From: Candidatus Kuenenia stuttgartensis
GTDB lineage: Bacteria; Planctomycetota; Planctomycetia; Pirellulales; UBA1268
Length of the DNA: 46,386 nucleotides
Assembly (NCBI GenBank): GCA_945870505.1
Contig: CAMBSN010000013.1
Span: 1 to 46,386, forward strand
Direction of reading: 5' to 3'
The position numbers and the translations under genes were made by a program. This document shows, piece after piece, positions 258 to 44,263 of the stretch. Positions within the stretch are counted from its first letter, which is position 1. Every line of letters begins with the position of its first letter. The notes beneath the pieces were generated by a model. It saw only the letters and a list, made by a program, of their open reading frames with translations, searched no databases and had not been told where the DNA came from.

Positions 258-397
258 GTGAGGGGCTGCCCGTGCCTCGGGAGCCGGGCTCGGCGGCAAG
301 CGAAGCCACGATGGCGAAGCGCAGCCGGCGTGCAGAGAGCGCAGGGCAGGATGCCCGCAGCGAACGTCCGGCGACGGGGCACGGGCAGCCCCGAGCC
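258..397 (+). repeat. Structured ~140-nt intergenic element, copy A
   Basis: Outer helix P1 pairs 262-279 with 375-392 (GGGGCTGCCCGTGCC arm). The inner helix P2 pairs CGGCGGC (291-297) with GCCGGCG (324-330), six of seven pairs. P3 is GCCA/TGGC (305-308/312-315) with a CGA loop. P4 is GGGCA/TGCCC (344-348/352-356) with a GGA loop. P2 differs at most positions from the other copies yet still pairs, which supports a conserved fold. Its right end is repeated at 400-437. Only this full copy lies upstream of a gene (recQ) rather than between converging genes. Confidence 0.75.
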
Positions 398-399
398 AC

Positions 400-437
400 G
401 CGAACGTCCGGCGACGGGGCACGGGCAACCCCGAGCC
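400..437 (+). repeat. Duplicated right end of the structured element
   Basis: Bases 400-437 repeat 360-397 almost exactly: the segment CGAACGTCCGGCGACGGGGC followed by ACGGGCA(G/A)CCCCGAGCC. The only clear change is G to A in the GCAGCCCC block. It looks like a partial tandem duplication of the right arm of copy A. Confidence 0.75.
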
Positions 438-451
438 GCCTGGGATCCCTT

Positions 452-476
452 CTGCAGTTTGACAACCTGCACCTAC
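452..476. repeat. Short palindromic repeat
   Basis: A CTGCAGTTTGACAACCTGCA core followed by CCTACG. It is a slightly degenerate copy of the CAGGTTnnnAACCTG palindrome family spread through the window. Confidence 0.6.
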
Positions 477-510
477 GCGGGCGGGCCCGAGCCCACTGCA
501 AACCCGGAAG

Positions 511-537
511 ACACACAGGTTGACAACCTGTGCTACG
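511..537. repeat. Short palindromic repeat
   Basis: The arms CACAGGTT and AACCTGTG surround GAC, followed by CTACG. This is a member of the dispersed palindrome family, here 63 bases upstream of recQ. Confidence 0.7.
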
Positions 538-600
538 GGGGGCCGCGAAGGGCTGCGGGCGGTCTGCTAACCTGAGGCCGTCCCCAAGGAAGGATCCGCC

Positions 601-2466
601 GTGACCAAGCAGGTCGAGACCGACGAGACACTACCGCTCGGCGACGCGCAGATCGCGGACGTCCTCACGCGATGGTGGGGCTTCGACCGGCTGCGGCCGC
701 TGCAGGCGGAAGCGATCGCCGCGGCTCTCGCCGGCCGCGACTCGCTGGTGGTGATGCCCACCGGCGGCGGCAAGAGCCTCTGCTACCAATTACCGCCGCT
801 CGTCGGTGAGACGACCGACGTGGTGATCTCGCCGCTCGTGGCCCTGATGAAGGACCAGGTCGATGCCCTGGAAGCGATCGGCTATCCCGCAGCGGCGATC
901 CACGGTGGCATGTCCCAGGAAGAGCGGTCGCAGGTACGCGACCGGCTGGCGGCCGGCGAACTACGGCTCTTGTTCACCGCCCCGGAGCGGCTGGTCAACA
1001 CCGGCCTCCTCGACGTGCTCGCCCGCGTCGGCGTGAAGCGGTTCGCTGTCGACGAGGCCCACTGCATCAGCCAATGGGGCCACGACTTCCGCCCCGAATA
1101 CCGGCAGCTTGCCCTCCTCCGAGACCGCTTCCCCTCCGCGAGCATCCACGCCTTCACAGCCACCGCCACCCCGCAGGTTCGCTCCGACATCGCCCGGCAG
1201 CTCAGCCTCCGCGATCCAGTGCAGTTGGTCGGCACGTTCGACCGCCCCAACCTCGTCTACCGAGTCGTGCCGCGGACTGACCGGATCGTCCAGACGCTCG
1301 CGATCCTCGGCCGCCATCGGGGCGAGGCTTCCATCGTCTACTGCATCTCGCGAAAGGAGACCGAGCGGCTGGCCGCCCGGCTCGCCGCCGAGGGACTGCT
1401 CGCCTGCCCGTACCACGCCGGACTCGACGCCAAACAGCGGCACCGGACCCAGGAGGCCTTCACCCGCGAGACGATCGACATCGTCGTCGCGACGGTTGCC
1501 TTCGGCATGGGAATCGACCGCTCCGACGTTCGGCTGGTGCTCCACACCTCGCTCCCCAAGAGCCTCGAGGCCTATCAGCAGGAAACCGGCCGTGCCGGCC
1601 GCGACGGCCTCGCGGCGGAGTGCGTGCTGCTGTACTCGTCGGCCGACGTGTTCAGCTGGGAGTCGCTCGTCCGCAAGAGCGCGGCGGAGTCGGAACTGGA
1701 GCCCGAGGAGCAGGAGCGGCTGATCGCGTCGCAGATGGAGCATCTGCTCTCGATGCGGCGCTACGCCCAGGCCGCCCGCTGCCGCCACGCCGCCCTCTCC
1801 GAGTATTTCGGGCAGTCTTACCCGGCCGCGGCCTGCGGTGCCTGCGACGTCTGCCTCGGCGAGACCGACAGCCTGCCCGACGCGACCGTGACGGCGCAGA
1901 AGATCCTCTCCTGCGTCGCCCGCGTCCAGGAACGGTTTGGCGTGCGGCACGTCTGCGAGGTGCTCCGCGGCGCCAAGACCGACGCCGTGCTCCGCCACCG
2001 CCATGACGGGCTCTCCACGTTCGGCCTGCTCGCCGCGGTCGACCAGCGGACCGCCGAGAACCTTGTCCACCAGTTGCTCGACCAGGAACTCCTCGCTCGG
2101 ACCGCTGGCGACCGGCCCGTCGTCACCCTCAACGAGCGCTCGTGGGAGGTCCTCCGCGGAACCCGTGAGGTGGTGCTGCTCGAGCCGCGGGCTGGCAAAG
2201 CGAAGGCCTCGAAGGCCGACACCGACGACTGGCAGGGCGTCGACCGCGACCTGTTCGAACGACTTCGCCGCTGGCGGCGGCGGATCGCCGAGGCCCGCGG
2301 CAAGCCCGCCTGGACGATCCTCGACGACAAGGCGCTCCGGGCGATCGCCCGCGAGCGGCCCGACTCGCTCGCCGCCCTGCTCCGCTGCAAGGGCATCGGT
2401 GAAAAGCGGCTCGCCGACTTCGGCGACGAACTTCTCAAGCTCGTTTCCGGAAAGGAAGACCCGTGA
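601..2466 (+). CDS. recQ: ATP-dependent DNA helicase RecQ
   Basis: A 621-residue superfamily 2 3'-to-5' DNA helicase of recombination and stalled-fork repair, close to the usual RecQ length. Walker A PTGGGKS is at residues 53-59, DEAH at 151-154 in DEAHCISQWGHDFRPEYR (the RecQ aromatic loop), TATATP follows near 186, and motif VI QETGRAGRDG is near 327-336. The RQC zinc site uses C394, C412, C415 and C418. A winged-helix region follows, and an HRDC-like domain covers about 545-615, ending in KGIGEKRLADFG. The GTG start at 601 is preceded by AGGAAGGA. The gene stands alone, flanked by repeat elements, and converges on livF. Confidence 0.96.
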   Translation: MTKQVETDETLPLGDAQIADVLTRWWGFDRLRPLQAEAIAAALAGRDSLVVMPTGGGKSLCYQLPPLVGETTDVVISPLVALMKDQVDALEAIGYPAAAIHGGMSQEERSQVRDRLAAGELRLLFTAPERLVNTGLLDVLARVGVKRFAVDEAHCISQWGHDFRPEYRQLALLRDRFPSASIHAFTATATPQVRSDIARQLSLRDPVQLVGTFDRPNLVYRVVPRTDRIVQTLAILGRHRGEASIVYCISRKETERLAARLAAEGLLACPYHAGLDAKQRHRTQEAFTRETIDIVVATVAFGMGIDRSDVRLVLHTSLPKSLEAYQQETGRAGRDGLAAECVLLYSSADVFSWESLVRKSAAESELEPEEQERLIASQMEHLLSMRRYAQAARCRHAALSEYFGQSYPAAACGACDVCLGETDSLPDATVTAQKILSCVARVQERFGVRHVCEVLRGAKTDAVLRHRHDGLSTFGLLAAVDQRTAENLVHQLLDQELLARTAGDRPVVTLNERSWEVLRGTREVVLLEPRAGKAKASKADTDDWQGVDRDLFERLRRWRRRIAEARGKPAWTILDDKALRAIARERPDSLAALLRCKGIGEKRLADFGDELLKLVSGKEDP

Positions 2467-2500
2467 GACCCACCGCCGCCGAGGCCGGCAGCGAGTGAAG

Positions 2501-2527
2501 ACACACAGGTTGAAAACCTGTGCTACG
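2501..2527. repeat. Short palindromic repeat
   Basis: CACAGGTT-GAA-AACCTGTG followed by CTACG, 34 bases after the recQ stop. The perfect 8-bp arms match the copy at 511-537. Confidence 0.7.
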
Positions 2528-2537
2528 AAAAGAGGCA

Positions 2538-2677
2538 GCGAGGGGCTGCCCGTGCCCCGGGAGCGGGCGTTGCTCGCCAGCGGAGGCAGGATGCCGGAGC
2601 GCCGCGGGCATCGAGTGAGCGGAGGCCACGAAGGCCGCAGCGAACGTCCGGCGACGGGGCATGGGCAGCCCCGAGCG
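2538..2677 (+). repeat. Structured ~140-nt intergenic element, copy B
   Basis: Lies between the converging 3' ends of recQ and livF. P1 pairs 2542-2559 with 2655-2672 (one G-T wobble). P2 pairs TGCTCGC (2571-2577) with GCGGGCA (2604-2610, one wobble). P3 is GGCA/TGCC (2585-2588/2592-2595) with a GGA loop. P4 is GGCC/GGCC (2624-2627/2633-2636). It is flanked on both sides by short palindromes. Confidence 0.78.
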
Positions 2678-2696
2678 GCAGCCCCACGCGTGACTC

Positions 2697-2726
2697 CTGT
2701 GCAGGTTGCCAACCTGCACCTACGTG
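2697..2726. repeat. Short palindromic repeat
   Basis: TGCAGGTT-GCC-AACCTGCA followed by CCTACG, 17 bases beyond the livF stop. The arm base pair is T-A/G-C here (TGCAGG/CCTGCA) instead of CACAGG/CCTGTG, a compensatory change relative to neighbouring copies. Confidence 0.7.
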
Positions 2727-2742
2727 GGAGAAGACGCCGCCG

Positions 2743-3461
<719 letters not shown>

Positions 3462-3465
<4 letters not shown>

Positions 3466-4802
3466 GCCTCCCCGCCAAGGTAAGCCTCGATCACCTTCTC
3501 GTCCCGCCGTACCTCGGCAGGCGTCCCCTCCGCAATCTTCACGCCGTGATCGAGCACCGCCACTTTGTCGCTCACCCGCATGACGACGTTCATGTGGTGC
3601 TCAATGAGCAGCACCGTCACGCCCCGGGCCCGGATCCGCTCTACGAGCGTCGCGAGATCGGACGTCTCCGCGGGATTCATGCCGGCCGCCGGCTCGTCGA
3701 GGAGCAGCAGTTCGGCCCCGGTAGCGAGCGCCCGGGCGATCTCCAGCCGTCGCTGGTCGCCGTAGGGCAGTTGGCCGGCGATTCGGTTGGCGTCGGACGC
3801 GAGGCCCACGAAATCAAGTTCCCGCAGAGCTGTCGCCCGGGCGTCCGCCTCGGCACGCCGGTTTCCGGGCGTGCGGACGAGCATCGCCAGCACACCGCCA
3901 GGAATGGTGCGGTCGAGCCCGATGAGCACGTTCTCGAGCACCGTCATGTTGGAGAACAGGCGGATGTTCTGAAACGTCCGCGACACCCCGGATCGGGCCA
4001 CCACGTGCGGCGACCGGCGGCCACGCCTCCAGACCGCGAGCGTGCCAGCCAGGCCGAGGATTCCCCCGAACAGGAAACCGAGGACTCCCCGCCAGCGAAT
4101 CCGCGACTTGCCGGCTGCCAGGCGGTCGAGCACCTCGGCCTTGATCAGAATCGGCGCGGCCGCAGCCGCAGCACCGGTCCGTTCCGTGTCGGTGGTGTCG
4201 GGCACCGTGCCCGGCCCCGCTCGCCGCGCGGTGACCGCCGCCTGGAGTTCATTGCGGACCGCGCGAGCCTCCTCGAGATCCCGCTTGATCGCCAGCACAT
4301 CGCTGCCGTCGGCGCTCACGACCCGCCATTTGCCGGCCATCTGATCGATCGCGAGCTCAGCGCGGAAGTAGCCGCGCATCCGGTCCATCACGCCCGTCAT
4401 GGTGAACGGTTCGCCGGTGATCATCCCCCGCTTCACCACGGCCATCCACAGCCGATCGACGTCGACCGTAGCCAGCGCGAAGAGCAGCCCCGTGAGCAAA
4501 CCAAGCCCGACGGCCGACCAGAACACCCGCGGAGTGAACGCCCGCTCCAGCCGACGGCCGTGGAACCGCACGGTACCTGAGGTCGGCGAGTAAATCCCGC
4601 TGATGCAGTTGAAGGCGGTCGTCTTCCCCGCCCCGTTGGGCCCGATCAGCGACACCACCGTCCCCTCGGGCACCTCGAGATCGAGGTCCGACACAGCCAC
4701 GAGCCCGCCAAACCGCACCGTCAGTCGGTCGACGTCGAGCAGTGGCTGCGGCGACATCGGCCGCGACTCGCCGCCGGATAGGGTTCCCGCGGTGGTGTTC
4801 AT
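3462..4802 (-). CDS. livG: LivG-type ABC transporter ATPase with a membrane-spanning insertion
   Basis: First ATPase of the Liv importer, 446 residues against about 255 in classical LivG. Walker A GPNGAGKT is at 54-61, but the next family block (GVSRTFQNIRLFSNMTVLENV, 272-292) comes about 180 residues late. The signature LPYGDQRRLEIARA (345-358), Walker B LLLLDEP (365-371) and H-loop EHHM (401-404) are normal. The extra block (about 86-266) has two hydrophobic stretches (about 93-115 and 237-258) enclosing about 120 polar residues with a charged helix (RDLEEARAVRNELQ) and an Ala/Pro/Thr-rich part. It is one uninterrupted frame with the same codon use as its surroundings. If both stretches span the membrane, the central part would face outward. 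Start ATG at 4802 overlaps the livM stop (TGATG). Confidence 0.92.
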
Positions 4803-11283: not shown

Positions 11284-11427
11284 GAGCGAGGGGCTGCCCG
11301 TGCCTCGAGAGCCGGCGTTGCTGACGAGCGCAGCCATGGATGGCGAAGCGAAGTCAGCATCGAGTGAGCGAAGGCCCAGGAGGGCCGCAGCGAACGTCCG
11401 GCGACGGGGCGTGGGCAGCTCCGAGCG
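11284..11427 (+). repeat. Structured ~140-nt intergenic element, copy C
   Basis: Between converging 3' ends (small membrane protein and carB). P1 arms are near 11290-11306 and 11404-11425, extended inward by GCCGG (11311-11315) with CCGGC (11398-11402) and CGTT (11316-11319) with AACG (11393-11396). P2 is TGCTGAC (11319-11325) with GTCAGCA (11353-11359), perfect; its first T could pair in either helix. P3 is GCCA/TGGC (11333-11336/11341-11344). P4 is GGCCC/GGGCC (11373-11377/11382-11386) with an AGGA loop. Confidence 0.8.
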
Positions 11428-11437
11428 GGGATGGCAA

Positions 11438-11463
11438 GACACGGGTTGGAAACCTGTGCTACG
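11438..11463. repeat. Short palindromic repeat
   Basis: ACACGGGTTGGAAACCTGTG followed by CTACG. A member of the CAGGTTnnnAACCTG family with one arm mismatch, four bases from the carB stop codon. Confidence 0.6.
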
Positions 11464-11466: not shown

Positions 11467-14748
<3,282 letters not shown>

Positions 14749-14770
14749 GGAACGGCTCTGCGGGGCGGGC

Positions 14771-14799
14771 AAAAAATCTCCCGAAGGTAGCATCCTTCG
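14771..14799 (-). promoter_or_regulatory. Terminator-like hairpin in the carB leader
   Basis: Read on the minus strand: CGAAGG (14799-14794), loop ATGCTA, CCTTCG (14787-14782), then GGAGA and six T (14776-14771), 23 bases before the carB ATG. The layout matches a Rho-independent terminator placed in a leader, so it could attenuate carB. No minus-strand gene upstream needs it as an ordinary terminator. The stem is only 6 bp and no competing antiterminator was worked out. Confidence 0.45.
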
Positions 14800-14876: not shown

Positions 14877-15413
14877 ATGTCGATTCCCACGCCTGCCACC
14901 GACGCCATTCGCGACACCCTCCCCGACGACCTCAAGGACATCCGCCTCAACGTGGGGGCCGTCCTGACCGGCGAAAACCTCCAGCCGACCCAGGCCCTCG
15001 GGGTGGCGGTGGCCGCGGCCCGGTTCGTCCGCTGCCAACCGCTCACCGCAGCCCTGGAATCGGACATCCGTGCGGGCCTCGGCGAGGTGGCCTCCTCCGT
15101 GCTCTCCGACGCGGTCGCCGCCGCCGGCCTGATGGCGATGAACACCGTCTACTACCGCTTCCGGCACATGCTAGGCAAGGAGAGCTACGAGGCGCGATCT
15201 CCGCGGCTGCGGATGAGCCGCATGGCCCAGCCGGCCACATCGAAACTCGATTTCGAGCTGATGAGCCTCGGCTGCGCGGCGCTTGCCGGCTGCGAACTCT
15301 GCATCAAGAACCACGAGGCGAGCCTGCTCCACCTCGGCGCGAGCGAAGATGCCTGCCACGACGCGGTGCGGATCGCCGCGGTGGTCAACGCCGCCGCCTG
15401 CGGGCTCGCGTAG
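14877..15413 (+). CDS. ahpD: AhpD-like alkylhydroperoxidase (carboxymuconolactone decarboxylase fold)
   Basis: A 178-residue all-helical thiol enzyme, nearly the length of mycobacterial AhpD (177), which reduces alkyl hydroperoxides or recycles a peroxiredoxin. The catalytic motif CELCIKNHE places the redox pair at C139 and C142 with H146, in the expected ExnCxxCxxxH arrangement. The AhpD-typical N-terminal half (LPDDLKDIRLNVGAVL) is present. The ATG at 14877 gives the family-like start. It is divergent from carB. The TAG stop (15411-15413) lies inside the first, degenerate copy of a palindromic repeat cluster. No ahpC is nearby. Confidence 0.88.
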   Translation: MSIPTPATDAIRDTLPDDLKDIRLNVGAVLTGENLQPTQALGVAVAAARFVRCQPLTAALESDIRAGLGEVASSVLSDAVAAAGLMAMNTVYYRFRHMLGKESYEARSPRLRMSRMAQPATSKLDFELMSLGCAALAGCELCIKNHEASLLHLGASEDACHDAVRIAAVVNAAACGLA

Positions 15414-15611
15414 CACAGCTTTCCAACCGACTCTCGTAGCACAGGTTTCCAACCTGTGCCGGAACAACGCAGGTTGAAAACCTGCGCTCCGCGCCCGCAG
15501 GTTACCAACCTGCGGCTACGGGTACGGACACCGTCACACGGCCCACGTAGGTGCAGGTTGGCTACCTGCACCAGCACCAATGCAACCGCAGGTTACCAAC
15601 CTGCGGCTACG
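15409..15611. repeat. Cluster of six short palindromes
   Basis: Six members of the CAGGTTnnnAACCTG family fill the gap between ahpD and the DUF971 gene: a degenerate copy at 15409-15428, then 15435-15459 (GCACAGG/CCTGTGC), 15468-15486 (CGCAGGTT/AACCTGCG), 15495-15520 (CCGCAGGTT/AACCTGCGG plus CTACG), 15546-15572 (GGTGCAGGT/ACCTGCACC) and 15586-15611 (same 26-base sequence as 15495-15520). Spacing is irregular and the arms differ between copies while staying complementary. This is not a CRISPR array. Confidence 0.8.
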
Positions 15612-25008: not shown

Positions 25009-25018
25009 ACGGGACTGG

Positions 25019-25066
25019 ATGCCCGAGGCGAACGTCCAGCGAGAGGGCGTGGGCAGCCCCGAGCCG
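25019..25066 (+). repeat. Truncated structured element, copy F
   Basis: Only the right third is present: GATGCCCG, then GCGAACGTCCAGCGAGAGGG and CGTGGGCAGCCCCGAGC. The left arm and inner hairpins are missing. It lies between two genes on the same strand. Confidence 0.65.
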
Positions 25067-26175: not shown

Positions 26176-27717
26176 ATGCAGAGCCGCCGGCACCGAGCAT
26201 TCGTGGGCGGTGCGGCGGCCGGCGTGGCGATGCTGCTGGCGGCAACGCTCGGCACGGCGGCCGACAAGCCGCCGGCCCGCAGCCTCTCCGAACTCGACGA
26301 AGCGTTCGCCGCCGCGACCCGCAACCTCGCCCGCCGCGCCACCGAGGCTGGTGATCCCTCGCTCGTGGAGATGATCACCGACTGGCACCTTCCCGCCGCC
26401 GGCGAACGCCAACTCATCGTGCGAATCCCGTCCCCGATCGAGAAGCCCGCGACGGTGGACACGCCCGCCGAGGAGATGGTCTGGAACGACTTCGTGGCGG
26501 CGCGACGCACCCGCGCCGCGGGCCTGTTCGAGCATGCGGTGTTCGTGGCCGGCGGCCACGACCGCACGCCCAGCCGCGACGAACTGGCGAAGCCCACCGC
26601 CGATGCGCCGCCACTGGCCCAACGGTCGTGCGAGGCCCTACGACTGCTGCACGAGGCGCTCCGCGAAGATCCGCACCATGAGCGGGCCCGCGAGGCTGGC
26701 GGATGGGTGAAGAGGGGTGACGACTGGCTCTGGCCGGAGGCCGCGAAGCGGCTTGATCGCGGCGAAGCCTACGATCCGGCGTTCGGTTGGATGCCAAAGG
26801 CCAGGCTCGAGCGGTATCGCGGCGGCGAGCGTTCCGACCGGGGCCGCTGGGTATCGGCCGCGGACGACGACGCCAGGCCCCGCGACGTGAAGCACGGCCG
26901 CGAGTTCCACTCCGACCACTGGGAAATCGTAACCGCCGCCAGTCTTGCCGATGCCGCCGTGCTCGCGGAGACACTGGAGGAGACCCGCGACGTCTGGCGG
27001 CAAGTCTTTGGCGCGTATGCCTTCGAGCCAGCCGACCTCGAGAAGCGGCTGGCGGGCCGTGGCCGCACGTCCGTACACACCCCCCACTCCGCGATTCTCT
27101 GTGCCGGCCGCGGACAATACGTTTCGGAACTCGAGCCGCTCGAGCCGCGGGTCGGCATGACCAACGGGATCTACTGGACGCCGACGAAGACGATCTGGTG
27201 TTTCACGGACGAGGCAGCCGACCCGCCGGAGCCCGACCCGATCACGATTCATCACGAGGCCACCCACCAGCTGTTTACTGAGGGCCGCGCCGACGCCGAG
27301 AAGGCGCGGCAGCAGGCGGGTGAGCGATGCGGCTTCTGGGCGATCGAGGCGGCCGCCTGTTACATGGAGTCGCTACAGGCGACCGGCTTCGGCTGGACCG
27401 TGGGCGGCCGCGACGCCGGCCGTGCCCCCGCCGCGAAGGATCGGCTCGACGAGGAGTTCTACGTTCCGTTCGCCGAACTCTGCGGCCTGGGACGCAAGGC
27501 GTTCCAAGCCCATGAGCGGCTCAAGCAGGTCTACAGCCAGATCGCCGGCCAGGCCGACTTCCTCATGAACGGTGAGGGAGGCCGCTACCGGGAGTCGTTC
27601 GTGGAGTACCTCGCCCGCGTCTACCAGGGCACGGCCGATCCTGACACGCTCGCGCGTCTCTGCAAGCGGAGCTACGCCGACCTCGACGACGCCTACCGCC
27701 GCCACCTGTTGCGGTAG
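26176..27717 (+). CDS. Secreted HExxH metallopeptidase-like protein (DUF1570-like)
   Basis: A 513-residue exported protein. The N-terminus MQSRRHRAFVGGAAAGVAML has paired arginines before the hydrophobic core, so Tat export is possible. The catalytic motif is HHEATHQLF, with zinc ligands H360 and H364 and base E361, followed by FWAIEAAACYMES, where E391 or the Glu near 398 could be the third ligand (gluzincin pattern). The arrangement resembles planctomycete DUF1570 proteins. The substrate is unknown. ATG at 26176 follows GAGGGG. A mobile unit begins right after the stop. Confidence 0.8.
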   Translation: MQSRRHRAFVGGAAAGVAMLLAATLGTAADKPPARSLSELDEAFAAATRNLARRATEAGDPSLVEMITDWHLPAAGERQLIVRIPSPIEKPATVDTPAEEMVWNDFVAARRTRAAGLFEHAVFVAGGHDRTPSRDELAKPTADAPPLAQRSCEALRLLHEALREDPHHERAREAGGWVKRGDDWLWPEAAKRLDRGEAYDPAFGWMPKARLERYRGGERSDRGRWVSAADDDARPRDVKHGREFHSDHWEIVTAASLADAAVLAETLEETRDVWRQVFGAYAFEPADLEKRLAGRGRTSVHTPHSAILCAGRGQYVSELEPLEPRVGMTNGIYWTPTKTIWCFTDEAADPPEPDPITIHHEATHQLFTEGRADAEKARQQAGERCGFWAIEAAACYMESLQATGFGWTVGGRDAGRAPAAKDRLDEEFYVPFAELCGLGRKAFQAHERLKQVYSQIAGQADFLMNGEGGRYRESFVEYLARVYQGTADPDTLARLCKRSYADLDDAYRRHLLR

Positions 27718-27720
27718 AGA

Positions 27721-27749
27721 AAAAGGTGCCAGCCACCAAATCTGGGTAA
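27721..27749 (+). repeat. Left inverted end of the RAYT unit
   Basis: The sequence AAAAAGGTGCCAGCCACCAA followed by ATCTGGGTA. Pairs with 28507-28536. Exact edges may be off by one base. Confidence 0.75.
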
Positions 27750-27770
27750 TGTGGGGAGTTGAGTCAGCCG

Positions 27771-28469
27771 TCAACCGAGCCGCAATGCCGTGCGGTCAAC
27801 TCTCGGTCGGCCACGCGGCCGCAGCGTCGCCACGAGATCGAGCCGCGCGGCGACCTCCTGCACCCAGCAATCGTCACCGAACGGCTGTCCACGAACCGCG
27901 CACATTCGTAAGCGGGCAAGTTCGCCCTCGGTCTGTGGCCGGTTTACCCACTCAATCCATTGATTACTGTGCCTCTCAGAGGGCCCCGGTGCCGGCCACG
28001 GCGCGAGGGGAATAGGGCCGGCGGGCGATCCCTGGCCGAGGCTCGACCACGGCCACTCTTCCGCCCGGGCCACAAGATTGGCCCGCAACGGGTTGCGCTC
28101 CACATAGCGGACAACACACTGAAAATAGTCTGCGGTCTGGATCGGAAACGACTTGAAACGCCCCTGATAGAGGTGGCCGTGCCCGATTTCGTCGTGAAAC
28201 CGTTTCCAGCGTTTCACATGGAGATTCGTGACGTGCTGAACAAACGCCGACAGGTCGCCGTCTCGCTCAGGCCAAAGGACCATATGCCAGTGGTTGGGCA
28301 TCACACAGTAGCCGCAGACCCGCATCGGCCTGGTACGCAGCGCCTCGGCGACCGTCTGAATAAACGCGTCGTAGTCAGCGGGCGAACCAAACACCGTCCG
28401 CCGCCCCACAGATCGATTCAGGACATGAAACGCCAAGCCACCGGGTGAGACTCGATTCGGTCGTGACAT
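27771..28469 (-). CDS. REP-associated tyrosine transposase (Y1/HUH)
   Basis: A 232-residue single-strand DNA transposase of the IS200-like RAYT family. The HUH metal motif is in CVMPNHWHMVLWP (His-Trp-His). The catalytic tyrosine should be in the helix SFPIQTADYFQCVVRYVERN. HGHLYQGRFKSFPIQ and RYVERNPLRANLV are hallmark blocks of the family. The C-terminal extension (about 165-232) is the usual RAYT tail. The frame is intact, so the enzyme may be active. RAYTs cut and join at REP hairpins; here the gene is bracketed by 29-30-base inverted repeats. It is oriented against the flanking genes. Confidence 0.92.
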   Translation of the reverse strand: MSRPNRVSPGGLAFHVLNRSVGRRTVFGSPADYDAFIQTVAEALRTRPMRVCGYCVMPNHWHMVLWPERDGDLSAFVQHVTNLHVKRWKRFHDEIGHGHLYQGRFKSFPIQTADYFQCVVRYVERNPLRANLVARAEEWPWSSLGQGSPAGPIPLAPWPAPGPSERHSNQWIEWVNRPQTEGELARLRMCAVRGQPFGDDCWVQEVAARLDLVATLRPRGRPRVDRTALRLG

Positions 28470-28506
28470 ATACGCATGTATACTCTTTGAGGCGGCCGTG
28501 TCAAAC

Positions 28507-28536
28507 TACCCAGATTTGGTGGCTGGCACCTTTTTT
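28507..28536 (-). repeat. Right inverted end of the RAYT unit
   Basis: TACCCAGATTTGGTGGCTGG followed by CACCTTTTTT, the reverse complement of the left end, 44 bases before the transketolase start. Confidence 0.8.
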
Positions 28537-28579
28537 CCTACACTCCCCGCGTCAGTTTCCAGCCCTTGAAGGAGCCTCT

Positions 28580-34217: not shown

Positions 34218-34355
34218 GCTCGGGGCTGCCCGTGCCCGTCGCCGGACGCTCGCTACGGGCATCCTGCCCTTCGCTCGCTCGATGCTGACTTCGCTTCGCC
34301 ATCCCTGGCTGCGCTCGTCAGCAACGCCGGCTCCCGGGCACGGGCAACCCCTCGC
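34218..34355 (-). repeat. Structured ~140-nt intergenic element, copy D
   Basis: Inverted relative to copies A-C. P1 pairs 34222-34238 with 34335-34351 (one mismatch). P4 is GGGCA/TGCCC (34257-34261/34265-34269) with a TCC loop. P2 is TGCTGAC (34283-34289) with GTCAGCA (34317-34323), perfect. P3 is GCCA/TGGC (34298-34301/34306-34309). Same P2 type as copy C. It lies between converging genes. Confidence 0.8.
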
Positions 34356-34559: not shown

Positions 34560-36467
34560 TCAGGCTTCGCGACGGGCCGCCTGCCGCTCGGCCGCGAGGC
34601 GACGAAACTCGGCATCGGCCTCCGGAAAATCCTGGATGATCCGCCGAAAATCGCTCCCCTCGAGCACCAGCAGATCGCACGGCCGTGTCGCCCGCACCGT
34701 CGCGCTTCGCGGCCGGTCGAAGAGGACCGCCATCTCACCGAAGAACTCACCCTCGCCGATGCGGCCAAGCACCTCCCCCGCCTCGCCAACCGCCTCGAGT
34801 TCACCACGGCAGACGAAATACATCTCCGATTTCAGGTCGCCACACTCCACCACCGCGGTCCCTGCCTCAACGACCAGCGGCTGAAAGGCAAGCAGGAGGT
34901 TGTTGAGCAGCACGACCGGGGCCGCGGTGAAGAACGGCGACCGTGCCAGCACCGCGCGGTTGAGGCTCTCGTGCCAGCGGCGGCTGTCGCGGGAGAGGAG
35001 CGTGCCGGCGGCCAGCGGCCCCCACGTACCGGCAGCGTAGTTGGGATAGTCGCCGGCGCGTGATTCTCGCCACGCGTCGAGCACCGGTTGCACGATCTGC
35101 CAGGACGTCTCCACGAAATCGGTCCGCGAGAAGAGCGTCGGATCCCCGTTGAGCGCGCTGAACAGCAGCACCTCGTAGCCGGTGCCACGGGCGGCTTCAA
35201 ACGTTTCGGCATAGTCGAATCGCATACCAGCCGATTGCAGCACGAAGGTCGGCCCCGGCCGCTTGGCCTGCATGCGGATCTCGACGGCCTGGAAGGGCTG
35301 GATGTGGAAGATCAGTTGGTTGCCCAGGCCGCACAACGGTGCGGACGGTTTGAACTGGACGACGATCTCGGTGCCCCGTTTCCACAGTGCCTTACCCGAC
35401 CTCAGGTAGACCGGCATGCCGGCCCAGCGGTCGTTATCGACGTGGAGTTTGACGGCGGCGTAGGTCTCGGTGTTCGAGTCGGGATCGACGGCCGGCTCCT
35501 CTCGGTAGCCAACGGCAGTCTCTCCGTCGGCCCGAACGCCGGCGCCATACTGACCCCGAACGCAGTCACGGTCGACGTCGTCACGATTCAACAGCCTCAC
35601 AGAGCGGAGCAGGGTCGACTTGGCGTCGCGAATGACGCCCGGATCGAGCGACGACGGCGGTTCCATGCAGACATAGGCCAGCATCTGCAGGAGATGATTC
35701 TGGAGCATGTCGCGAACCACGCCCGTCTTGTCGTAGTAGCCCCCGCGGGTCTCGACACCCACGGTCTCCGTCGCCGAGATCTGGATGTGGTCGATGTGAC
35801 GGGCGTCCCAGAGGGGCGCGAACATGCTGTTGGCGAGCCGGAACGCCAGCAGGTTCTGCACGGTTTCCTTGCCGAGGTAATGGTCGATCCGATAGATCTC
35901 GTCCTCGCGCCAGTGATCAAGCAGCGTCTGATTGAGCGCCCGGGCCGAGGCCAGATCCTTCCCGAACGGCTTCTCGACGATAATCCGCTTCTGCCCCGCG
36001 AGCCGGGTGAACCCGGCGGCATCGAGCTGCCGGTTCACGAGCCCGAAAAAGTCAGGCGAGATCGCCAGGTAGAGCAGCGTGTTACCGGCGGCGCCGCTCG
36101 ACGCCGCCACCTCATCGACGAGCGACTTGAGCCGCGTGAAGGCGGCCGGATCGTCGAACTCGCCGCCGGTGTAGTGCAGCCGCGATTCCAGCCACTGCCA
36201 GCAGCCCTCGTCGAGCGTCGCCCGCGTGTTGAAACGGCCGATCTCGGCTCGCTGCTGGCTGCGAAACTCGGGGGTCGTGATCGGCTCACGGCCCATGCCG
36301 ACGATGGCGAAGGCCTCGGGCAAGAGTCCGTCACAGGCGAGGTTGTAGACCGCCGGGATCAGCAGCCGCTTCGTCAGGTCGCCCGATGCGCCCACGATCA
36401 CGAGCACGCCCGGAGCGGCCGTAACCGTCCGAGCAGGCCGGCCGTCACGCTGTGTTTCTGGTTGCAT
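34560..36467 (-). CDS. zwf: Glucose-6-phosphate dehydrogenase fused to a cyclic-nucleotide-binding domain
   Basis: A 635-residue fusion. Residues about 18-505 are a full G6PD, the NADP-dependent entry enzyme of the oxidative pentose phosphate pathway: nucleotide-fold motif GASGDLTKR (26-34), EKPFGKD (165-171), active-site RIDHYLGKE (193-201), and YLRSGKALWKR further on. Residues about 510-625 form a cyclic-nucleotide-binding (CRP/PKA-regulatory type) domain: PLVVEAGTAVVECGDLKSEM, then YFVCRGELEAVGE, then the phosphate-binding cassette FFGEMAVLFDRPRSATVRA with the key E578 and R587 kept. Ordinary G6PD ends near 490-510. The frame is continuous with no stop or repeat at the join. It is inferred that a nucleotide or other ligand tunes the enzyme. 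ATG at 36467. Confidence 0.93.
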   Translation of the reverse strand: MQPETQRDGRPARTVTAAPGVLVIVGASGDLTKRLLIPAVYNLACDGLLPEAFAIVGMGREPITTPEFRSQQRAEIGRFNTRATLDEGCWQWLESRLHYTGGEFDDPAAFTRLKSLVDEVAASSGAAGNTLLYLAISPDFFGLVNRQLDAAGFTRLAGQKRIIVEKPFGKDLASARALNQTLLDHWREDEIYRIDHYLGKETVQNLLAFRLANSMFAPLWDARHIDHIQISATETVGVETRGGYYDKTGVVRDMLQNHLLQMLAYVCMEPPSSLDPGVIRDAKSTLLRSVRLLNRDDVDRDCVRGQYGAGVRADGETAVGYREEPAVDPDSNTETYAAVKLHVDNDRWAGMPVYLRSGKALWKRGTEIVVQFKPSAPLCGLGNQLIFHIQPFQAVEIRMQAKRPGPTFVLQSAGMRFDYAETFEAARGTGYEVLLFSALNGDPTLFSRTDFVETSWQIVQPVLDAWRESRAGDYPNYAAGTWGPLAAGTLLSRDSRRWHESLNRAVLARSPFFTAAPVVLLNNLLLAFQPLVVEAGTAVVECGDLKSEMYFVCRGELEAVGEAGEVLGRIGEGEFFGEMAVLFDRPRSATVRATRPCDLLVLEGSDFRRIIQDFPEADAEFRRLAAERQAARREA

Positions 36468-36554
36468 GGCTGCGACTCCCCTGGGCGGATCGTAGCACAG
36501 CGAGAGAAATGGCCCGCAGAGCTTCAGCCGACCGCGGCGACCCATCGCCCACCA

Positions 36555-39845: not shown

Positions 39846-40131
39846 TCGGGACGTTCGCTGGGGTTCGAAAACAGAGCTGGGGGCCGGGAAAATCGCGGGT
39901 TTATAGGAGTGGCCGCGCACGTGGGTCAAGGCATCGCAGCCGCCATCAATCGCCCGCAAGTCGCGGCGGCGTGGGGGGTTATCGCCGACCGCATCCTGGC
40001 CTCCGCCCCACCGTCAGGAGTCGCTCTGCCGGCCCCGCGGCCGCGCGAGTTGGGGCGAACGGCGACGGCTTGCGAATCCACGAGGCGGCGGCGGGGGCAA
40101 TCTGCCGAGGTACTCTGGGAGGCTCGGTAAG

Positions 40132-42519
40132 ATGGATTCCTGCCGCGCCATGGCTCGGCGTAGCCCCCGCCGTCCGCGCGAGTCGCCGCCCTTGTCCGCT
40201 CCGTCGCACCCAAGCGCTCTTCCCCAGACTGCCCCGGGGGCCTCCGTCGCGTCACGACTCTCAGCTTTCCTGATCGATCAGCGGCTGGGCTTCGCCATCC
40301 TCGCCGTTGCGATCACGGCGGGGGCGGTGCTCCTGTCAAAGCGGCTCGAGTTCTCGCGGTCGATCGACGCGATGTTCGATCGTTCCGACCCGGCCCTCGT
40401 GCCCTACGCGCGGATGACGAGGACGTTCGGCTCCAACGAGACCGTGCTCGCCGCCTACGACGATCCGCACCTCTTCACGTCTGAAGGAATCGCCCGGCTC
40501 CGTCAGCTCGCGGCCGAACTGGGATCGGTGCCCGGCGTGGCCTCGACCACGAGCCTGGCCAGTACGCCACTGGGCGACGCCATCGTCGATCTCGACCGCG
40601 GGCTCGCCGCCGGCTGGGCGCGGCGGCTCGTGTCACTTCTGGAGGGCTATCTCGTCGGCGCCGATCACCGCACGGCGGGCATCGCCTGCACGCTCGAGCC
40701 ACGTGACGGCGCTGCCGCGCAGCCAGGCAAGGGACCGACCCGTAAACAGACGATCACCGAGCTTCGCAAGCGGATGCAAGACATGCCAGCGGGCACGATC
40801 GCTGGCGAGCCGGTGATGCTGTTGGATGGATTCGAGATGCTCCAGCGCGACGGCAACCTCCTCGGCACCGGTAGCGGCCTGCTCGCAGGCGCCGTGCTGC
40901 TCGCCTGCTTCCGGAGCATCCGCTGGCTGGTGGTACCGCTGGCGGTGGTGCTGTTCTCGCTCTGGACGACCCGTGGCCTGCTCGCCCTGGCCGGTCTCAA
41001 GCTGACGATGGTCTCGACGATGCTCTCGGCGATGGTCACGGTGGTTGGGATCGGCACCGTCACCCACGTGATCGTGGAGTTCAGGCGACTCCGCTCTCTG
41101 GGGATGCCGGCGATCGAGGCCCTGCGAACAGCCTTCACCACGCTCTTCTGGCCCGTGGCCGGCGCCATCGCCACCGACGTGATCGGGTTCGGCTCTCTCA
41201 CCGCGAGCAACGTGGGCCCGGTGCACGACTTCGGCATCATGACGTCGATCGGCGCCATGACGGTGCTCGTGGCGATGGGCCTGGTCGTTCCCTTTCTGGC
41301 ACTCGCGGGCCGTTTCGATCCCGATCCACGCATGGCCTGGGGCGAAGGGGCGCTCGACCGCGGGCTCGACGCCCTGGTGCGGCGGATCATCCGGTATCCG
41401 CTGCCGATCCTCGCCGCGGCGGCGGCCGTCACGATCGCCGCCATGACCGGCATGCGGTGGCTGACGGTGGAAACCGATTTTACGAAGAACTTCCGCGATT
41501 CGAGCGCCACGGTGAAGGCGTACGACATGGTGGAGTCGCGGCTCGGTGGCGCCGGGGTGTGGGACATACTCGTTCCGGCAACCGAGCCGATCGATGGCAA
41601 CCAACTCGACGCACTCGACCATCTCGCCGATCGGCTCCGTCGCGAGGTCACCGCGCCGGGTCCGGACGGCGCCATAACGCCGGCACTCACGAAGGTGATG
41701 AGCGTCGTGGATGTGGTCTCAGCGGCTCCGCTGCTGCCGCGAATAGGGCAGGCACTGGCTGTCAATGCGATGCTCCGGCAGGAAAATGACCGACAGCCGG
41801 CTTTCGTGCGGTCGCTCGTCGGCCGCGATCGCCAGGACGGCGGAACCTGGCTGCGGGTCATGCTCCGGGCGCACGAGCGGCAGCCCGCGGCGGCCAAGCG
41901 GGCGATCATCGACCAGGTGCGACAGATCGCGGCGGAGGAGTATCCAGCCGCTGGCCGCCGGGGTGGCGCCGAGGTGACTGGGTTTTTCGTCCTCCTCTCG
42001 CAGCTCGTCGACCGGCTGCTCGCCGACCAGTGGCTCACCTTCCTGATCGCAGCGGCGGGCATCTTCCTGCTCCTGGCCGTCGCCTTCCGCAGCCTGCTGC
42101 TCGCCGCGATCGCCCTCGTGCCGAACAGCCTGCCGATCTTCGTCGTGCTCGGACTGCTCGGCTGGGTTGGCGAGCCGATCAACATGGGCACAGCCATGAT
42201 CGCCGCCGTGTCGATGGGGCTCTCTGTCGACAGTTCGATCCACTACATCGCCGCCTTCCGTCGTAGGCTCGCTGACGGAACGCACGCCGCCGCCCTGGAG
42301 ACGGCCCACCAGACGGCCGGGCGAGCGATGATCTTCTCCACGCTCGCCCTCACGATCGGCTTTCTCGCTCTGACCACAAGCGGATTCATGCCCACCGTGT
42401 CATTTGGCTGGCTATCGGCGCTCACACTCCTCGGCGGGCTCGTGGGCAATCTCGTGGTCCTACCGGTGCTCCTCGCCCTGGCATCCCCGTGGCTCCGCGG
42501 CGGCTCGCCCGCCGCCTGA
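40132..42519 (+). CDS. RND/MMPL-family membrane transporter
   Basis: A 795-residue RND-superfamily permease with two copies of the layout helix, large outer domain, five helices. The first helix is at about 52-70 (LGFAILAVAITAGAVLL), a periplasmic part follows (about 75-250), then a helix bundle including MLSAMVTVVGIGTVTHVIVE and GFGSLTASNVGPVHDFGIMT, typical of the MMPL/SSD region. The second half repeats this, ending INMGTAMIAAVSMGLSVDSS and IHYIAAFRRRL. Relatives move lipids, hopanoids or drugs; the substrate is unknown. It is divergent from the LptD-like gene (286 bases apart), which allows, but does not prove, a role at the outer membrane. A second ATG at codon 7 is possible. Confidence 0.88.
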   Translation: MDSCRAMARRSPRRPRESPPLSAPSHPSALPQTAPGASVASRLSAFLIDQRLGFAILAVAITAGAVLLSKRLEFSRSIDAMFDRSDPALVPYARMTRTFGSNETVLAAYDDPHLFTSEGIARLRQLAAELGSVPGVASTTSLASTPLGDAIVDLDRGLAAGWARRLVSLLEGYLVGADHRTAGIACTLEPRDGAAAQPGKGPTRKQTITELRKRMQDMPAGTIAGEPVMLLDGFEMLQRDGNLLGTGSGLLAGAVLLACFRSIRWLVVPLAVVLFSLWTTRGLLALAGLKLTMVSTMLSAMVTVVGIGTVTHVIVEFRRLRSLGMPAIEALRTAFTTLFWPVAGAIATDVIGFGSLTASNVGPVHDFGIMTSIGAMTVLVAMGLVVPFLALAGRFDPDPRMAWGEGALDRGLDALVRRIIRYPLPILAAAAAVTIAAMTGMRWLTVETDFTKNFRDSSATVKAYDMVESRLGGAGVWDILVPATEPIDGNQLDALDHLADRLRREVTAPGPDGAITPALTKVMSVVDVVSAAPLLPRIGQALAVNAMLRQENDRQPAFVRSLVGRDRQDGGTWLRVMLRAHERQPAAAKRAIIDQVRQIAAEEYPAAGRRGGAEVTGFFVLLSQLVDRLLADQWLTFLIAAAGIFLLLAVAFRSLLLAAIALVPNSLPIFVVLGLLGWVGEPINMGTAMIAAVSMGLSVDSSIHYIAAFRRRLADGTHAAALETAHQTAGRAMIFSTLALTIGFLALTTSGFMPTVSFGWLSALTLLGGLVGNLVVLPVLLALASPWLRGGSPAA

Positions 42520-42586
42520 AAACGTGTACAACACGTCGTCGTCGTGGCCCCTGGAATCGCCGCGATGTTTCCCGGAGAGAGAGACC

Positions 42587-44107
42587 ATGTCCCGCGAGTT
42601 CCTGCCGATCGCTGGTTCCGGCCCTATCACCTGCGAGCCCTCCACCCGCCCAGACTCCGTCGATGCCGAGGCCGTCGTCGTCTTCATGGCCGAGGGGGGC
42701 GTGGGTATCGGCTCGGCCGCCGAACTTGATGCCGCCACCAGCGGGCTGCTCGGCAGGCTCGCCGCCGCCGGCGAGCTCACCGGCCGTCGCTACGAGTGCG
42801 TGCCCCTGCTCGCCGCCCCGGGGCTACGGGCGGGCCAGTTGGTCGTCGTCGGCGTCGGCAAGCGGGAAGACGTGACCGCGGGCGTGCTCTACCGCGCAGC
42901 GGCCACGGCGTCGCGACACCTCGCCGCCAAACCCCGCGGCCGCGTCGCCTTCGTCGCCGACGGTGCGTGGACCACCAAGCAGGTGGAGCAGGCCGTCGCC
43001 GGTGCCGCCGTGGGCATGGTGGGTCAGGATCTCTATCGCGCGGAGCCGAAACGAAACCGGTTTGGCACCACGATCTGGATCTCGGCGCCCGTGGAGGCGG
43101 TCGAGCGGGGGGCGGTGATCGCCGACGGCGTCAACCTCGCCCGGCGGCTCATTAACATGGCCCCAGACGACATCTACCCGCAGTCGTTCGCCGATGAGTG
43201 TGCCACGATCGCCGGCCGCACCGGGCTCGACATTGAAATCTGGGACGAAGACCGCCTCGTCCGCGAACGGTGCAACGCGATCCTCGCCGTGGGTCGCGGC
43301 AGCTCGCGACCGCCGCGGTTGGTGATCCTCCGCTACCGCGGCGCCGGCCGCACCGGCCAGGGCCGCGCGGCGACTGACGCCGTGCCCCAGCTCGCGCTGG
43401 TCGGAAAGGGCGTGACCTTCGACTCCGGCGGGCTGTCACTCAAGCCCTCGGAGGGCATGCTGACGATGAAGTGCGACATGTCTGGCGCCGCCGCCGTGCT
43501 CTCCGCCGCCGCGACGATCGCCGCGCTCAAGCTGCCGATCGACGTGGTGGTGGGCATCGGCCTCGTCGAGAACATGACGGGCCCCGCCGCCTACAAGCTC
43601 GGCGATGTGATCACGGCCCGCAACGGCACGACGATCGAGATCCATAACACAGACGCCGAGGGGCGGGTGGTGCTGGCCGACGTGCTCGACGTGATCCGCG
43701 GCGAAAAGCCGCGGCGGATTGTCGATCTGGCCACGCTCACCGGCGCCTGTGTCGTGGCTCTCGGCCAGGACGTGGCGGGCCTGTTCACCAACGACCAGGC
43801 CTGCTGCGACGCCGTGGCCGCCGCCGCCCGCGAGGTGGGCGAGCAGGTCTGGCAGCTGCCGATGTATCCCGACTACGACGAGCAGATCAAGAGCGAGGTC
43901 GCCGACATCAAGAACGTAGGCGACGGTCGCTGGGGGGGCGCGATCACGGCCGCCAAGTTTCTCGAGCGGTTCGTGGGTGGCATCCCCTGGACCCACGTGG
44001 ACATCGCCGGCCCGGCCTTCTCCGAGAAGAGTAGGCCGTGGACCGACGGCGGCGCGTCGGGCTCAATGGTGAGGCCGCTCGTCGAACTCGCCCGCGCCGG
44101 CGGGTAG
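42587..44107 (+). CDS. pepA: Leucyl aminopeptidase (M17)
   Basis: A 506-residue cytosolic aminopeptidase that removes N-terminal residues from peptides, using two metal ions. The catalytic lysine is K274 in LVGKGVTFDSGGLSLKP, with metal ligand D279. The M17 signature NTDAEGRVVLADVL is at 354-367, with D356 and E358 as metal ligands and R360 catalytic. MLTMKCDMSGAAAVL adds a further Asp ligand. C-terminal YPDYDEQIKSEVADIKN and GGAITAAKFLERFV are normal. The ATG at 42587 has GGAGAGAGA upstream. It lies 67 bases after the RND transporter gene on the same strand, and converges on pepF. Confidence 0.96.
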   Translation: MSREFLPIAGSGPITCEPSTRPDSVDAEAVVVFMAEGGVGIGSAAELDAATSGLLGRLAAAGELTGRRYECVPLLAAPGLRAGQLVVVGVGKREDVTAGVLYRAAATASRHLAAKPRGRVAFVADGAWTTKQVEQAVAGAAVGMVGQDLYRAEPKRNRFGTTIWISAPVEAVERGAVIADGVNLARRLINMAPDDIYPQSFADECATIAGRTGLDIEIWDEDRLVRERCNAILAVGRGSSRPPRLVILRYRGAGRTGQGRAATDAVPQLALVGKGVTFDSGGLSLKPSEGMLTMKCDMSGAAAVLSAAATIAALKLPIDVVVGIGLVENMTGPAAYKLGDVITARNGTTIEIHNTDAEGRVVLADVLDVIRGEKPRRIVDLATLTGACVVALGQDVAGLFTNDQACCDAVAAAAREVGEQVWQLPMYPDYDEQIKSEVADIKNVGDGRWGGAITAAKFLERFVGGIPWTHVDIAGPAFSEKSRPWTDGGASGSMVRPLVELARAGG

Positions 44108-44125
44108 GATGCCCGTCGCGTGGCC

Positions 44126-44263
44126 GCGAGGGGCTGCCCGTGCCCCGTTGCCGGACGCTCGCTGCGGGCTCCGGCCCTCCGCTCGCTCGATGCTCGCGGC
44201 GCTCCGGCATCCTGCCTGCGCTGGCGAGCAACGCCGGCTCCCGGGGCACGGGCAGCCCCTCGC
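44126..44263 (-). repeat. Structured ~140-nt intergenic element, copy E
   Basis: Inverted relative to A-C. The terminal helix is the best in the window: 44126-44147 is a perfect 22-bp complement of 44242-44263. P4 is GGGC/GCCC (44166-44169/44174-44177). P2 is TGCTCGC (44191-44197) with GCGAGCA (44224-44230), perfect. P3 is GGCA/TGCC (44206-44209/44213-44216) with a TCC loop. It lies between the converging pepA and pepF genes. Confidence 0.82.

What the first reader, a model, noticed from the sequence alone, without database searches (positions are those of the whole stretch)
258..44263. Dispersed ~140-nt intergenic element with a covarying three-way-junction fold
Five full copies (258-397, 2538-2677, 11284-11427, 34218-34355, 44126-44263) share a terminal helix of 17-22 bp enclosing two hairpin arms. 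Helix P2 changes between copies but keeps pairing: TGCTGAC/GTCAGCA in C and D, TGCTCGC/GCGAGCA in E (GCGGGCA with a wobble in B), CGGCGGC/GCCGGCG (6 of 7) in A. P3 alternates GCCA/TGGC and GGCA/TGCC. P4 alternates GGGCA/TGCCC, GGCCC/GGGCC, GGCC/GGCC and GGGC/GCCC. Such compensatory changes argue that the fold, in RNA or single-stranded DNA, is under selection or needed for spreading. I do not recognise it as a known RNA family or insertion sequence.
Basis: seen in the sequence. Interest (0 to 1): 0.88.

Follow-up and report, generated by a model that had tools for sequence, protein, structure and literature searches.

The report
Folded repeat element in planctomycete genomes
A roughly 140-letter stretch of non-coding DNA sits in over a hundred places of this bacterium's genome, mostly between genes, and keeps the ability to fold into one three-armed shape, which suggests an old DNA parasite that spread as a folded single strand although no enzyme that moves it could be found.

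Summary
The five copies belong to a repeat with at least 150 matches in this 3.35 Mb draft genome (scoring cap), found in 63 of 72 genomes of its taxonomic family. In a class-wide sample 2 of 148 were positive, the own genome and another of the family. Rfam has no match. On 205 copies aligned by sequence, 7 of 48 predicted pairs covary beyond tree-based nulls, none outside; with 94 own-genome copies only one passes. One strand carries the fold: G.U outnumbers A.C (230 vs 42 cells), and GNA/GNA, GA/GA and GGA motifs are strongly conserved. Copies avoid divergent gaps (0 of 66), show no target duplication, and in genus g101 have short, asymmetric conserved tails. I read it as a REPIN-like element spread as a folded DNA strand. 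Its enzyme is unknown: Y1 genes are patchy, and 33 of 34 scanned (of 38) have no copy in the fetched flanks. Arms differ as whole blocks at some orthologous sites.

The parts
258..396 (+). copy A of the 139-nt three-way-junction element
400..435 (+). extra right-end unit directly after copy A (tandem copy, spacing 40 nt)
2538..2676 (+). copy B, between recQ (601-2466 +) and an ABC transporter ATPase gene (2743-3465 -)
11286..11426 (+). copy C, next to the end of the carbamoyl-phosphate synthase large subunit gene (11467-14793 -)
25012..25063 (+). solo right end (P4 arm and right P1 strand)
34218..34355 (-). copy D, convergent gap beside the glucose-6-phosphate dehydrogenase gene (34560-36545 -)
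44126..44263 (-). copy E, convergent gap between the leucyl aminopeptidase gene (42404-44107 +) and pepF (44325-46133 -)
507..537 (.). GTAG-tagged REP-like palindrome about 110 nt after copy A (separate repeat family, companion)
2497..2527 (.). GTAG-tagged REP-like palindrome directly 5' of copy B (companion)
11433..11463 (.). GTAG-tagged REP-like palindrome 3' of copy C (companion)
44269..44302 (.). GTAG-tagged REP-like palindrome directly 5' of copy E, which is on the minus strand (companion)

Best explanation
The element is a non-autonomous, REPIN-like mobile DNA. Its terminal arms pair into a 17-22 bp helix (P1) that closes a three-way junction with two arms of the same design: a hairpin with a GGA loop on a GNA/GNA internal loop and a GC/GC clamp. 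The purine-rich strand is the one that folds. SHOWN: dispersion, strand-specific fold, covariation, placement outside divergent gaps, absence of target duplications in the copies examined, short asymmetric conserved tails in one genus, internally deleted copies, arms that differ as blocks at the same site. INFERRED: when the strand is exposed as single-stranded DNA (for instance at a replication fork) it folds, a strand-transfer enzyme of the HUH type recognises the fold and its tails, and cuts and joins it elsewhere; copies that fold badly do not spread, so the fold is kept by selection for spreading. NOT SHOWN: the enzyme, movement today, the single-stranded intermediate. Once resident, copies decay by deletion inside the hairpin and have blocks replaced, probably by recombination with other copies. 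They persist mainly downstream of genes, where a strong hairpin does least harm or may protect mRNA ends.
For: Covariation: 7 of 48 pairs at E<=0.05 under two nulls, none outside (205 copies). P2, P3 and P4 cores occur as 17, 6 and 8 distinct fully Watson-Crick stems. Strand specificity: G.U 230 vs A.C 42 cells in G-C pairs (own genome alone 144 vs 22). In 94 own-genome copies unpaired G80, A81, A106, A47, A61, A54, A94, A77 and T110 are 94/94, while the commonest base at the middle N of the GNA motifs reaches only 40-53 of 93-94. Placement: of 66 copies between two called genes, 33 codirectional, 33 convergent, 0 divergent, against 90 of 518 gaps divergent. Orientation to codirectional genes is 19 same, 14 opposite, so the folding strand is not that of host transcripts. 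No direct repeat of 5 nt or more at the ends: 0 of 70 and 0 of 49. In genus g101 the 5' tail (G-M-n-G-M-ATCC) and 3' tail (CG..GC) are conserved and are not each other's complement. Site E has no copy in seven relatives; a G005 copy is an internally deleted remnant in G000.
Against: No enzyme. Y1_Tnp matches occur in 28 of 72 family genomes: 26 of 63 with the element and 2 of 9 without, Fisher p 0.47. Nearly complete genomes rich in copies have no match (G009, G013, G155, G209). Of 34 scanned Y1 genes (38 listed) one has copies in the fetched flanks, about 2.5 kb off. No clean pre-insertion site was found among the pairs examined: the best candidate is an internal deletion. The ends lack the GTAG tag of REPs. 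Own-genome copies are divergent: mean pairwise identity 0.83, median nearest neighbour 0.94. With own copies alone 1 of 48 pairs is significant, and no P1 pair is significant in either set.
Confidence: 0.58

Rival explanations
1. It is a functional structured RNA. The purine-rich strand is transcribed and the RNA fold does a job in the cell, for example as an mRNA 3'-end element or as a decoy: the two GGA hairpin loops (CAGGAUG, CAUGGAUG) look like binding sites of the RNA-binding protein CsrA (CsrA motif recalled).
For: G.U tolerance and conserved GA motifs suit RNA. Loop positions 53-54 and 93-94 are GA in 94/94 own copies. CsrA is matched in 72 of 72 family genomes, up to six matches in one. 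Copies lie in gaps downstream of at least one gene.
Against: No clear preferred orientation to codirectional genes (19 vs 14). In g101 the flanks beyond the short tails are not shared between copies; a promoter search was not made. Match numbers swing from 0 to the cap between relatives that all have CsrA, including 7 element-free genomes of genus g106. No Rfam relative.
Confidence: 0.2
2. It is a classical MITE: a deleted DDE transposon whose terminal inverted repeats are the P1 arms, moved as double-stranded DNA by a DDE transposase elsewhere in the genome.
For: P1 arms are inverted repeats of about 22 nt at both ends, the size of MITE ends.
Against: No target duplication of 5 nt or more in 70 own-genome and 49 g101 rows, shorter ones at the shuffled level. 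Conserved tails outside P1 are asymmetric. The interior keeps a strand-specific fold, which a double-strand mechanism does not need. No search for DDE genes was made.
Confidence: 0.1
3. The pairing is kept mechanically, without selection: template switching inside palindromes and gene conversion between copies rewrite one arm from the other or swap whole arms.
For: Blocks differ at orthologous sites: C30 vs L318 in the P2-P3 block, C16 vs L317 in P2 and P3, L014 vs L324 in P2 and P4; two further pairs (C43/L319, C9/L337) are nearly identical. Some copies carry grafted hairpins inside P3, near P2 or in P4.
Against: Template correction would repair the G.A mismatches that are instead strongly conserved and has no reason to favour G.U over A.C on one strand (230 vs 42). 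Exchange between copies moves paired arms but does not create the 17, 6 and 8 distinct paired stems.
Confidence: 0.1

Closest known systems
REPIN (REP doublet forming a hairpin), Bertels and Rainey 2011, PMC3116915 (passages read)
   Same: Two inverted terminal units closing a hairpin, many copies in intergenic DNA, solo ends, compensatory changes in the hairpin.
   Different: Larger and branched: a three-way junction with two arms of one design and conserved G.A motifs in place of a variable spacer; no GTAG tag at the ends; no RAYT gene found beside it; so far seen in one planctomycete family.
Class 3 Y1 HUH proteins with atypical secondary structures, PMC6006769 (passages read)
   Same: Reported mainly from Planctomycetes, with high-copy atypical folds; this family encodes proteins that resemble class 3 by motif only (L032, L234, L431, L440 in the same genus, L438 in another).
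   Different: The gene in this genome lies among another palindromic repeat, without a copy of this element in its 2.5 kb locus. The reported 5' foot is CnGA; the four bases before the helix here are mostly GCGA or GTGA.
BIME (mosaics of REPs), described in PMC3733652 (first of eight parts and passages read)
   Same: In this genome 57 of 70 copies have a GTAG-type palindrome within 200 nt, mostly in one orientation and at fixed spacing.
   Different: The association is nearly absent elsewhere (2 of 163 non-own rows; the near relative G005 does show it), so the palindrome is a companion and not part of the element.
ERIC and other 100-170 nt bacterial intergenic repeats (recalled; only the listing with the start of the abstract of PMC2229807 and PMC2759123 seen)
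   Same: Size, imperfect palindrome, intergenic.
   Different: ERIC was not aligned here; a three-way junction with G.A motifs is not a feature I recall for it.

Membership tests
REPIN | two inverted terminal units separated by a spacer and forming one hairpin | tested here: met
REPIN | many copies, in intergenic DNA | tested here: met
   150 matches, cap, 8 of them partial; 1 of 72 full copies overlaps a called gene
REPIN | terminal unit is a REP: short palindrome with an unpaired GTAG-type tag | tested here: not met
   ends read mostly GCGAGGGGCTGC / GCAGCCCCGAGC, no GTAG next to the helix
REPIN | cognate RAYT gene flanked by the same repeat | tested here: not met
   34 of 38 Y1 matches of the family scanned, none adjacent; one with copies about 2.5 kb away; some flanks are cut short by contig ends
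DDE-type MITE | target-site duplication | tested here: not met
   0 of 70 and 0 of 49 with 5 nt or more
DDE-type MITE | terminal inverted repeats shared with a DDE element | not tested
   no DDE search was made
Class 3 Y1 associated repeat | flanks a class 3 Y1 gene | tested here: not met
   five class-3-like loci (L032, L234, L431, L438, L440) have no copy in the fetched flanks
Class 3 Y1 associated repeat | 5' foot CnGA | tested here: not met
   GCGA or GTGA in most copies
known Rfam family | match at gathering score | tested here: not met
   0 in the window; sub-threshold matches of 15.8 bits or less for two copies
hammerhead ribozyme | CUGANGA core (recalled) | tested here: not met
   junction strand reads mostly CGAGNGA, and no Rfam match in the window
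structured non-coding RNA | transcribed from the purine-rich strand | not testable with these tools
   no RNA-seq

The most novel reading that the evidence does not exclude
A strand-specific three-way junction with sheared G.A modules is itself the unit recognised by an enzyme of a kind not yet linked to repeats: copies abound in genomes without a detectable Y1 transposase (and reverse transcriptase was matched in only 2 of 13 same-genus genomes), so either an unknown HUH-like or host replication/repair enzyme moves it, or it spreads as an RNA.
Probability: 0.25. Interest if true: 0.88.

Novelty: new variant of a known kind. Interest (0 to 1): 0.62.

Why it matters
How REPs and REPINs spread is still an open question. 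In this family the folded part, rather than a short palindrome, shows the clearest constraint; the element was found in one bacterial family only, varies from zero matches to at least 150, and has no detectable resident Y1 enzyme in many genomes. That gives a natural experiment: related genomes with and without copies, same-site comparisons, and one genus (g101) with similar copies and sharp ends. It also warns that covariation between dispersed copies can be inflated when whole arms move as blocks.

Tried and rejected
Rfam at gathering and at E<=10 gave nothing usable. Target duplications: none of 5 nt or more. Y1 transposase as resident mobiliser: the window's own gene (27771-28469; PF01797 42.7 bits over its cut-off of 23, NF047646 70.5 bits under its cut-off of 80) has its own inverted repeats and no copy in its 3.3 kb locus; presence of Y1 does not track the element. 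With filters off, seven Y1 loci gave only weak matches, the best 21.4 bits, E 0.0049, in L229, against 58 bits or more for the matches. Reverse transcriptase: PF00078 in 2 of 13 same-genus genomes, not in the own genome. Hammerhead-like junction: considered because of GA-stem-GAA; rejected, the core differs. A clean empty site: the best candidate (G005 L312 against G000 C40) is an internal deletion. Viral contigs: no match to the DNA pattern. A composite with GTAG palindromes as the mobile unit: attractive in the own genome, rejected because most other genomes' copies lack it. Literature; no report of this element was seen in the listed titles and abstract starts; the library is open-licence papers only.

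Limits of the numbers: of 281 aligned matches 252 were full-length and 205 remained after identical rows were removed (that script stopped with an error after saving its data, and went on with a one-column shift corrected). 111 of the 205 are from other genomes; 80 of the loci searched for them were fetched with a pattern that fixes part of the P4 arm and junction, so conservation there is partly by construction; the own-genome figures are free of this. Rows include some copies held under two locus ids, and palindromes were sought there within 120 nt. Gene calls come from a simple codon-usage script; the 808 kb were chosen towards contigs with copies. In one search two genomic copies are present twice (L159=L417, L115=L401), so 50 rows are 48 copies and the mean identity includes them.

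Full report
OBSERVATION. Folded as RNA on the chosen strand each beats all its 200 dinucleotide shuffles, z -5.25 to -8.52. That strand is the more stable one in 30 of 30 copies with RNA and with DNA parameters.

EXTENT. A blastn search of the own draft genome (3.35 Mb, 180 contigs, 87% complete) gave 46 matches with 40 of 258 candidates scored. A covariance model built from 30 copies (R1) gave 150 matches, the scoring cap; 8 are partial. By blastn 18 of 18 other same-genus genomes and 0 of 11 genomes of other families were positive. With R1: 63 of 72 genomes of the family, 11 of 12 genera; 2 of 148 in a class-wide sample with stricter filters, the own genome and G155 of the same family. Viral contigs: none.

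ANATOMY (model positions 1-139). P1: 1-22 with 118-139, 17-22 pairs, with a tandem GA/GA or, less often, a paired GA/TC near its base. P1b: 26-30 with 111-115. P2: 31-40 with 67-76. P3: 43-51 with 55-63. P4: 78-91 with 95-108. The P2-P3 and P4 arms share one design: a GC/GC clamp, a GNA/GNA internal loop, a variable stem, and a GGA-containing loop. The P4 arm adds a tandem GA/GA step. In 94 own-genome copies the G and A of these motifs are kept (G80, A81, A106, A47, A61, A54, A94 each 94 of 94; G105 91; weakest A102 76 of 94) while the commonest base at the middle N is found in only 40-53 of 93-94. This is the pattern expected of sheared G.A pairs around an unpaired N (general knowledge), and it exists on one strand only.

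COVARIATION. On the 30 copies of A2, 96.4% of cells pair, 14 pairs have changes on both sides, and sliding the partner by 1-3 columns leaves 32-43% paired. On 205 copies aligned with a sequence-only profile, a G-test with background correction against two nulls on a FastTree tree (substitutions reshuffled per branch, or per column over branches; 60 replicates each) finds 7 pairs at E<=0.05, all among the 48 pairs of the structure: 34-73, 37-70, 39-68 (P2), 49-57 (P3), 79-107, 88-98, 89-97 (P4). No P1 pair passes. This is an R-scape-like test of my own, not R-scape, and arms that move as blocks will disturb its tree. Against: with the 94 own-genome copies and 200 replicates of the first null only 89-97 passes. 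Distinct fully paired core stems: 17 in P2, 6 in P3, 8 in P4; but 83 of 205 copies have at least one mismatch in the P2 core in this register, among them a subfamily (TGGGAGC/GCGGACA) that may use another register.

STRAND. In G-C pairs, single C>T changes that leave G.U number 230 cells, single G>A changes that leave A.C 42; own genome alone 144 vs 22. Counted as one-step variants, A.C is not rarer than G.U among singletons (14 vs 8), but only one A.C variant is found in more than five copies against 14 G.U. I read this as selection on what spreads or lasts; a mutational bias was not excluded, because conserved unpaired C is too rare to serve as control (7 cells).

CONTEXT. In 808 kb of the own genome (22 segments) a sequence-only search gave 90 matches: 72 full, 13 right ends, 5 partial, 0 solo left ends. 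Of the 72, 33 lie between codirectional genes, 33 between convergent genes, 0 between divergent genes, 5 at segment edges, 1 overlaps a called gene; 90 of 518 gaps are divergent (P of 0 in 66 is 3e-6 by gaps, 2e-8 by bases). In codirectional gaps 19 point with the genes and 14 against. In convergent gaps 24 of 33 have their 3' end towards the nearer gene. Placement is typical of tolerated repeats, and the folding strand is not tied to host transcription.

COMPANIONS. 55 of 72 copies have a palindrome CAGGTT..AACCTG within 120 nt, against 18 of 171 element-free gaps of at least 150 bp (Fisher p 8e-24). Of 70 copies, 42 have one 5' within 200 nt (37 with the tag CTAC towards the element, 27 at 15-18 nt) and 36 one 3' (33 in the same orientation, 30 at 18-27 nt). 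Elsewhere only 2 of 163 rows have it; G005 copies fetched later do show it. So the GTAG palindrome looks like a lineage-specific neighbour with a fixed address beside the element, and not part of it.

HISTORY AT ORTHOLOGOUS SITES. Site E (between the leucyl aminopeptidase and pepF genes) has no copy in G001, G002, G003, G007, G008, G009 and G011, and a degraded half-like remnant in G004 and G010. G005 is about 90% identical to the own genome over 50 alignments of 400 nt or more. There one G005 copy is represented in G000 by its outermost ends with the interior missing, a G005 copy lacks most of the P2-P3 arm (L357 against L015), and another carries an insert of about 77 nt in P4. Of five same-site pairs aligned in full, two are nearly identical (C43/L319, C9/L337) and three differ in blocks: at C30/L318 the outer parts and P4 are nearly identical while the P2-P3 block is of another subfamily; at C16/L317 a long P3 faces a short one and P2 differs; at L014/L324 P2 and P4 differ. 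Hence decay by deletion inside the hairpin and replacement of blocks. No clean new insertion was caught.

ENDS. In genus g101 (50 rows, 48 distinct copies; 34 cores of 139 nt on average 93% identical) the 5' flank is conserved for about nine bases (G 42 of 49 at -9; A 38, T 40, C 44, C 44 of 49 at -4 to -1) and the 3' flank for about six (C 44 and G 41 of 50 at +1, +2; G 35 and C 34 at +5, +6), then sequence is unique. No direct repeat of 5 nt or more flanks any of 49 of these, nor any of 70 own-genome copies. In the own genome the 5' flank is weaker: G 50, A 49, C 49, A 45 of 70 at -6, -5, -2, -1 (sums of the two tables). Asymmetric tails on a hairpin with no duplication are what IS200/IS605-type and REP systems show (recalled for IS200/IS605; the 5'-tail of a putative REPIN intermediate is in PMC3116915, passages), and not what DDE elements leave.

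ENZYME. PF01797 (Y1) is matched in 28 of 72 family genomes. G204 has four Y1 matches and no copy. I scanned the surroundings (up to 1.5 or 3 kb, less where contigs end) of 34 of the 38 Y1 matches with R1; one locus (L429) has two copies about 2.5 kb from the gene. The family also holds proteins that resemble class 3 Y1 by motif (HVH..YVVDGQ in the own genome), a class reported mainly from Planctomycetes with high-copy atypical structures (PMC6006769, passages). In the own genome that gene sits among copies of a different palindromic repeat. Reverse transcriptase: 2 of 13 same-genus genomes, not in the own genome. CsrA: 72 of 72.

VERDICT. What it works like: a REPIN-like hairpin element spread as a folded DNA strand (0.58). 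Is it a REPIN: no, as tag and flanking RAYT were tested and not met. The fold is real and under constraint; whether RNA or DNA is not settled by sequence. No description of this element was seen in the listings (open-licence library only).

Noticed in passing
window 27714-28541: Y1 (REP-type) transposase gene 27771-28469 (-) between 40-nt inverted repeats (27714-27753 and 28502-28541, 90% complementary), unrelated to the 139-nt element. The unit is missing at this gap in G002, G008 and G009, and in G012 the same gap holds a copy of the 139-nt element (L256:5194-5329).
   Followed up: partly
L032:761-1327 (G000 contig C19), also L234, L431, L438, L440: Proteins that resemble class 3 HUH Y1 by motif (HxH...YVxxxQ, WLPG); in L032 the gene lies among several copies of another palindromic repeat (GGCCTTACGGCC and CGCCGTAAGGCG).
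   Followed up: partly
own genome C16:27914-28079, C18:39378-39544, C4:15507-15672 and others: Long variants of the element carry a grafted hairpin of about 26 nt (CCGATCCGCC..GGCGGATTGG) in P3 or near P2, in both orientations.
   Followed up: partly
own genome C28:5847-6057, C5:35292-35531, C30:43-166, C26:33848-33990, and L312 of G005: A second insert family (GATGCTGGGAGCCGGGCTGCGCCCGGCGACCGTAAGCCGGAG...) sits in the P4 arm of several copies.
   Followed up: no
L113, L099, L152, L120, L156, L107: Copies sometimes form divergent pairs with their 5' ends about 20-105 nt apart.
   Followed up: no
window 15406-15611: Cluster of GTAG-type palindromes; at the orthologous gap G008 has a copy of the 139-nt element (L253:1761-1899).
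   Followed up: partly
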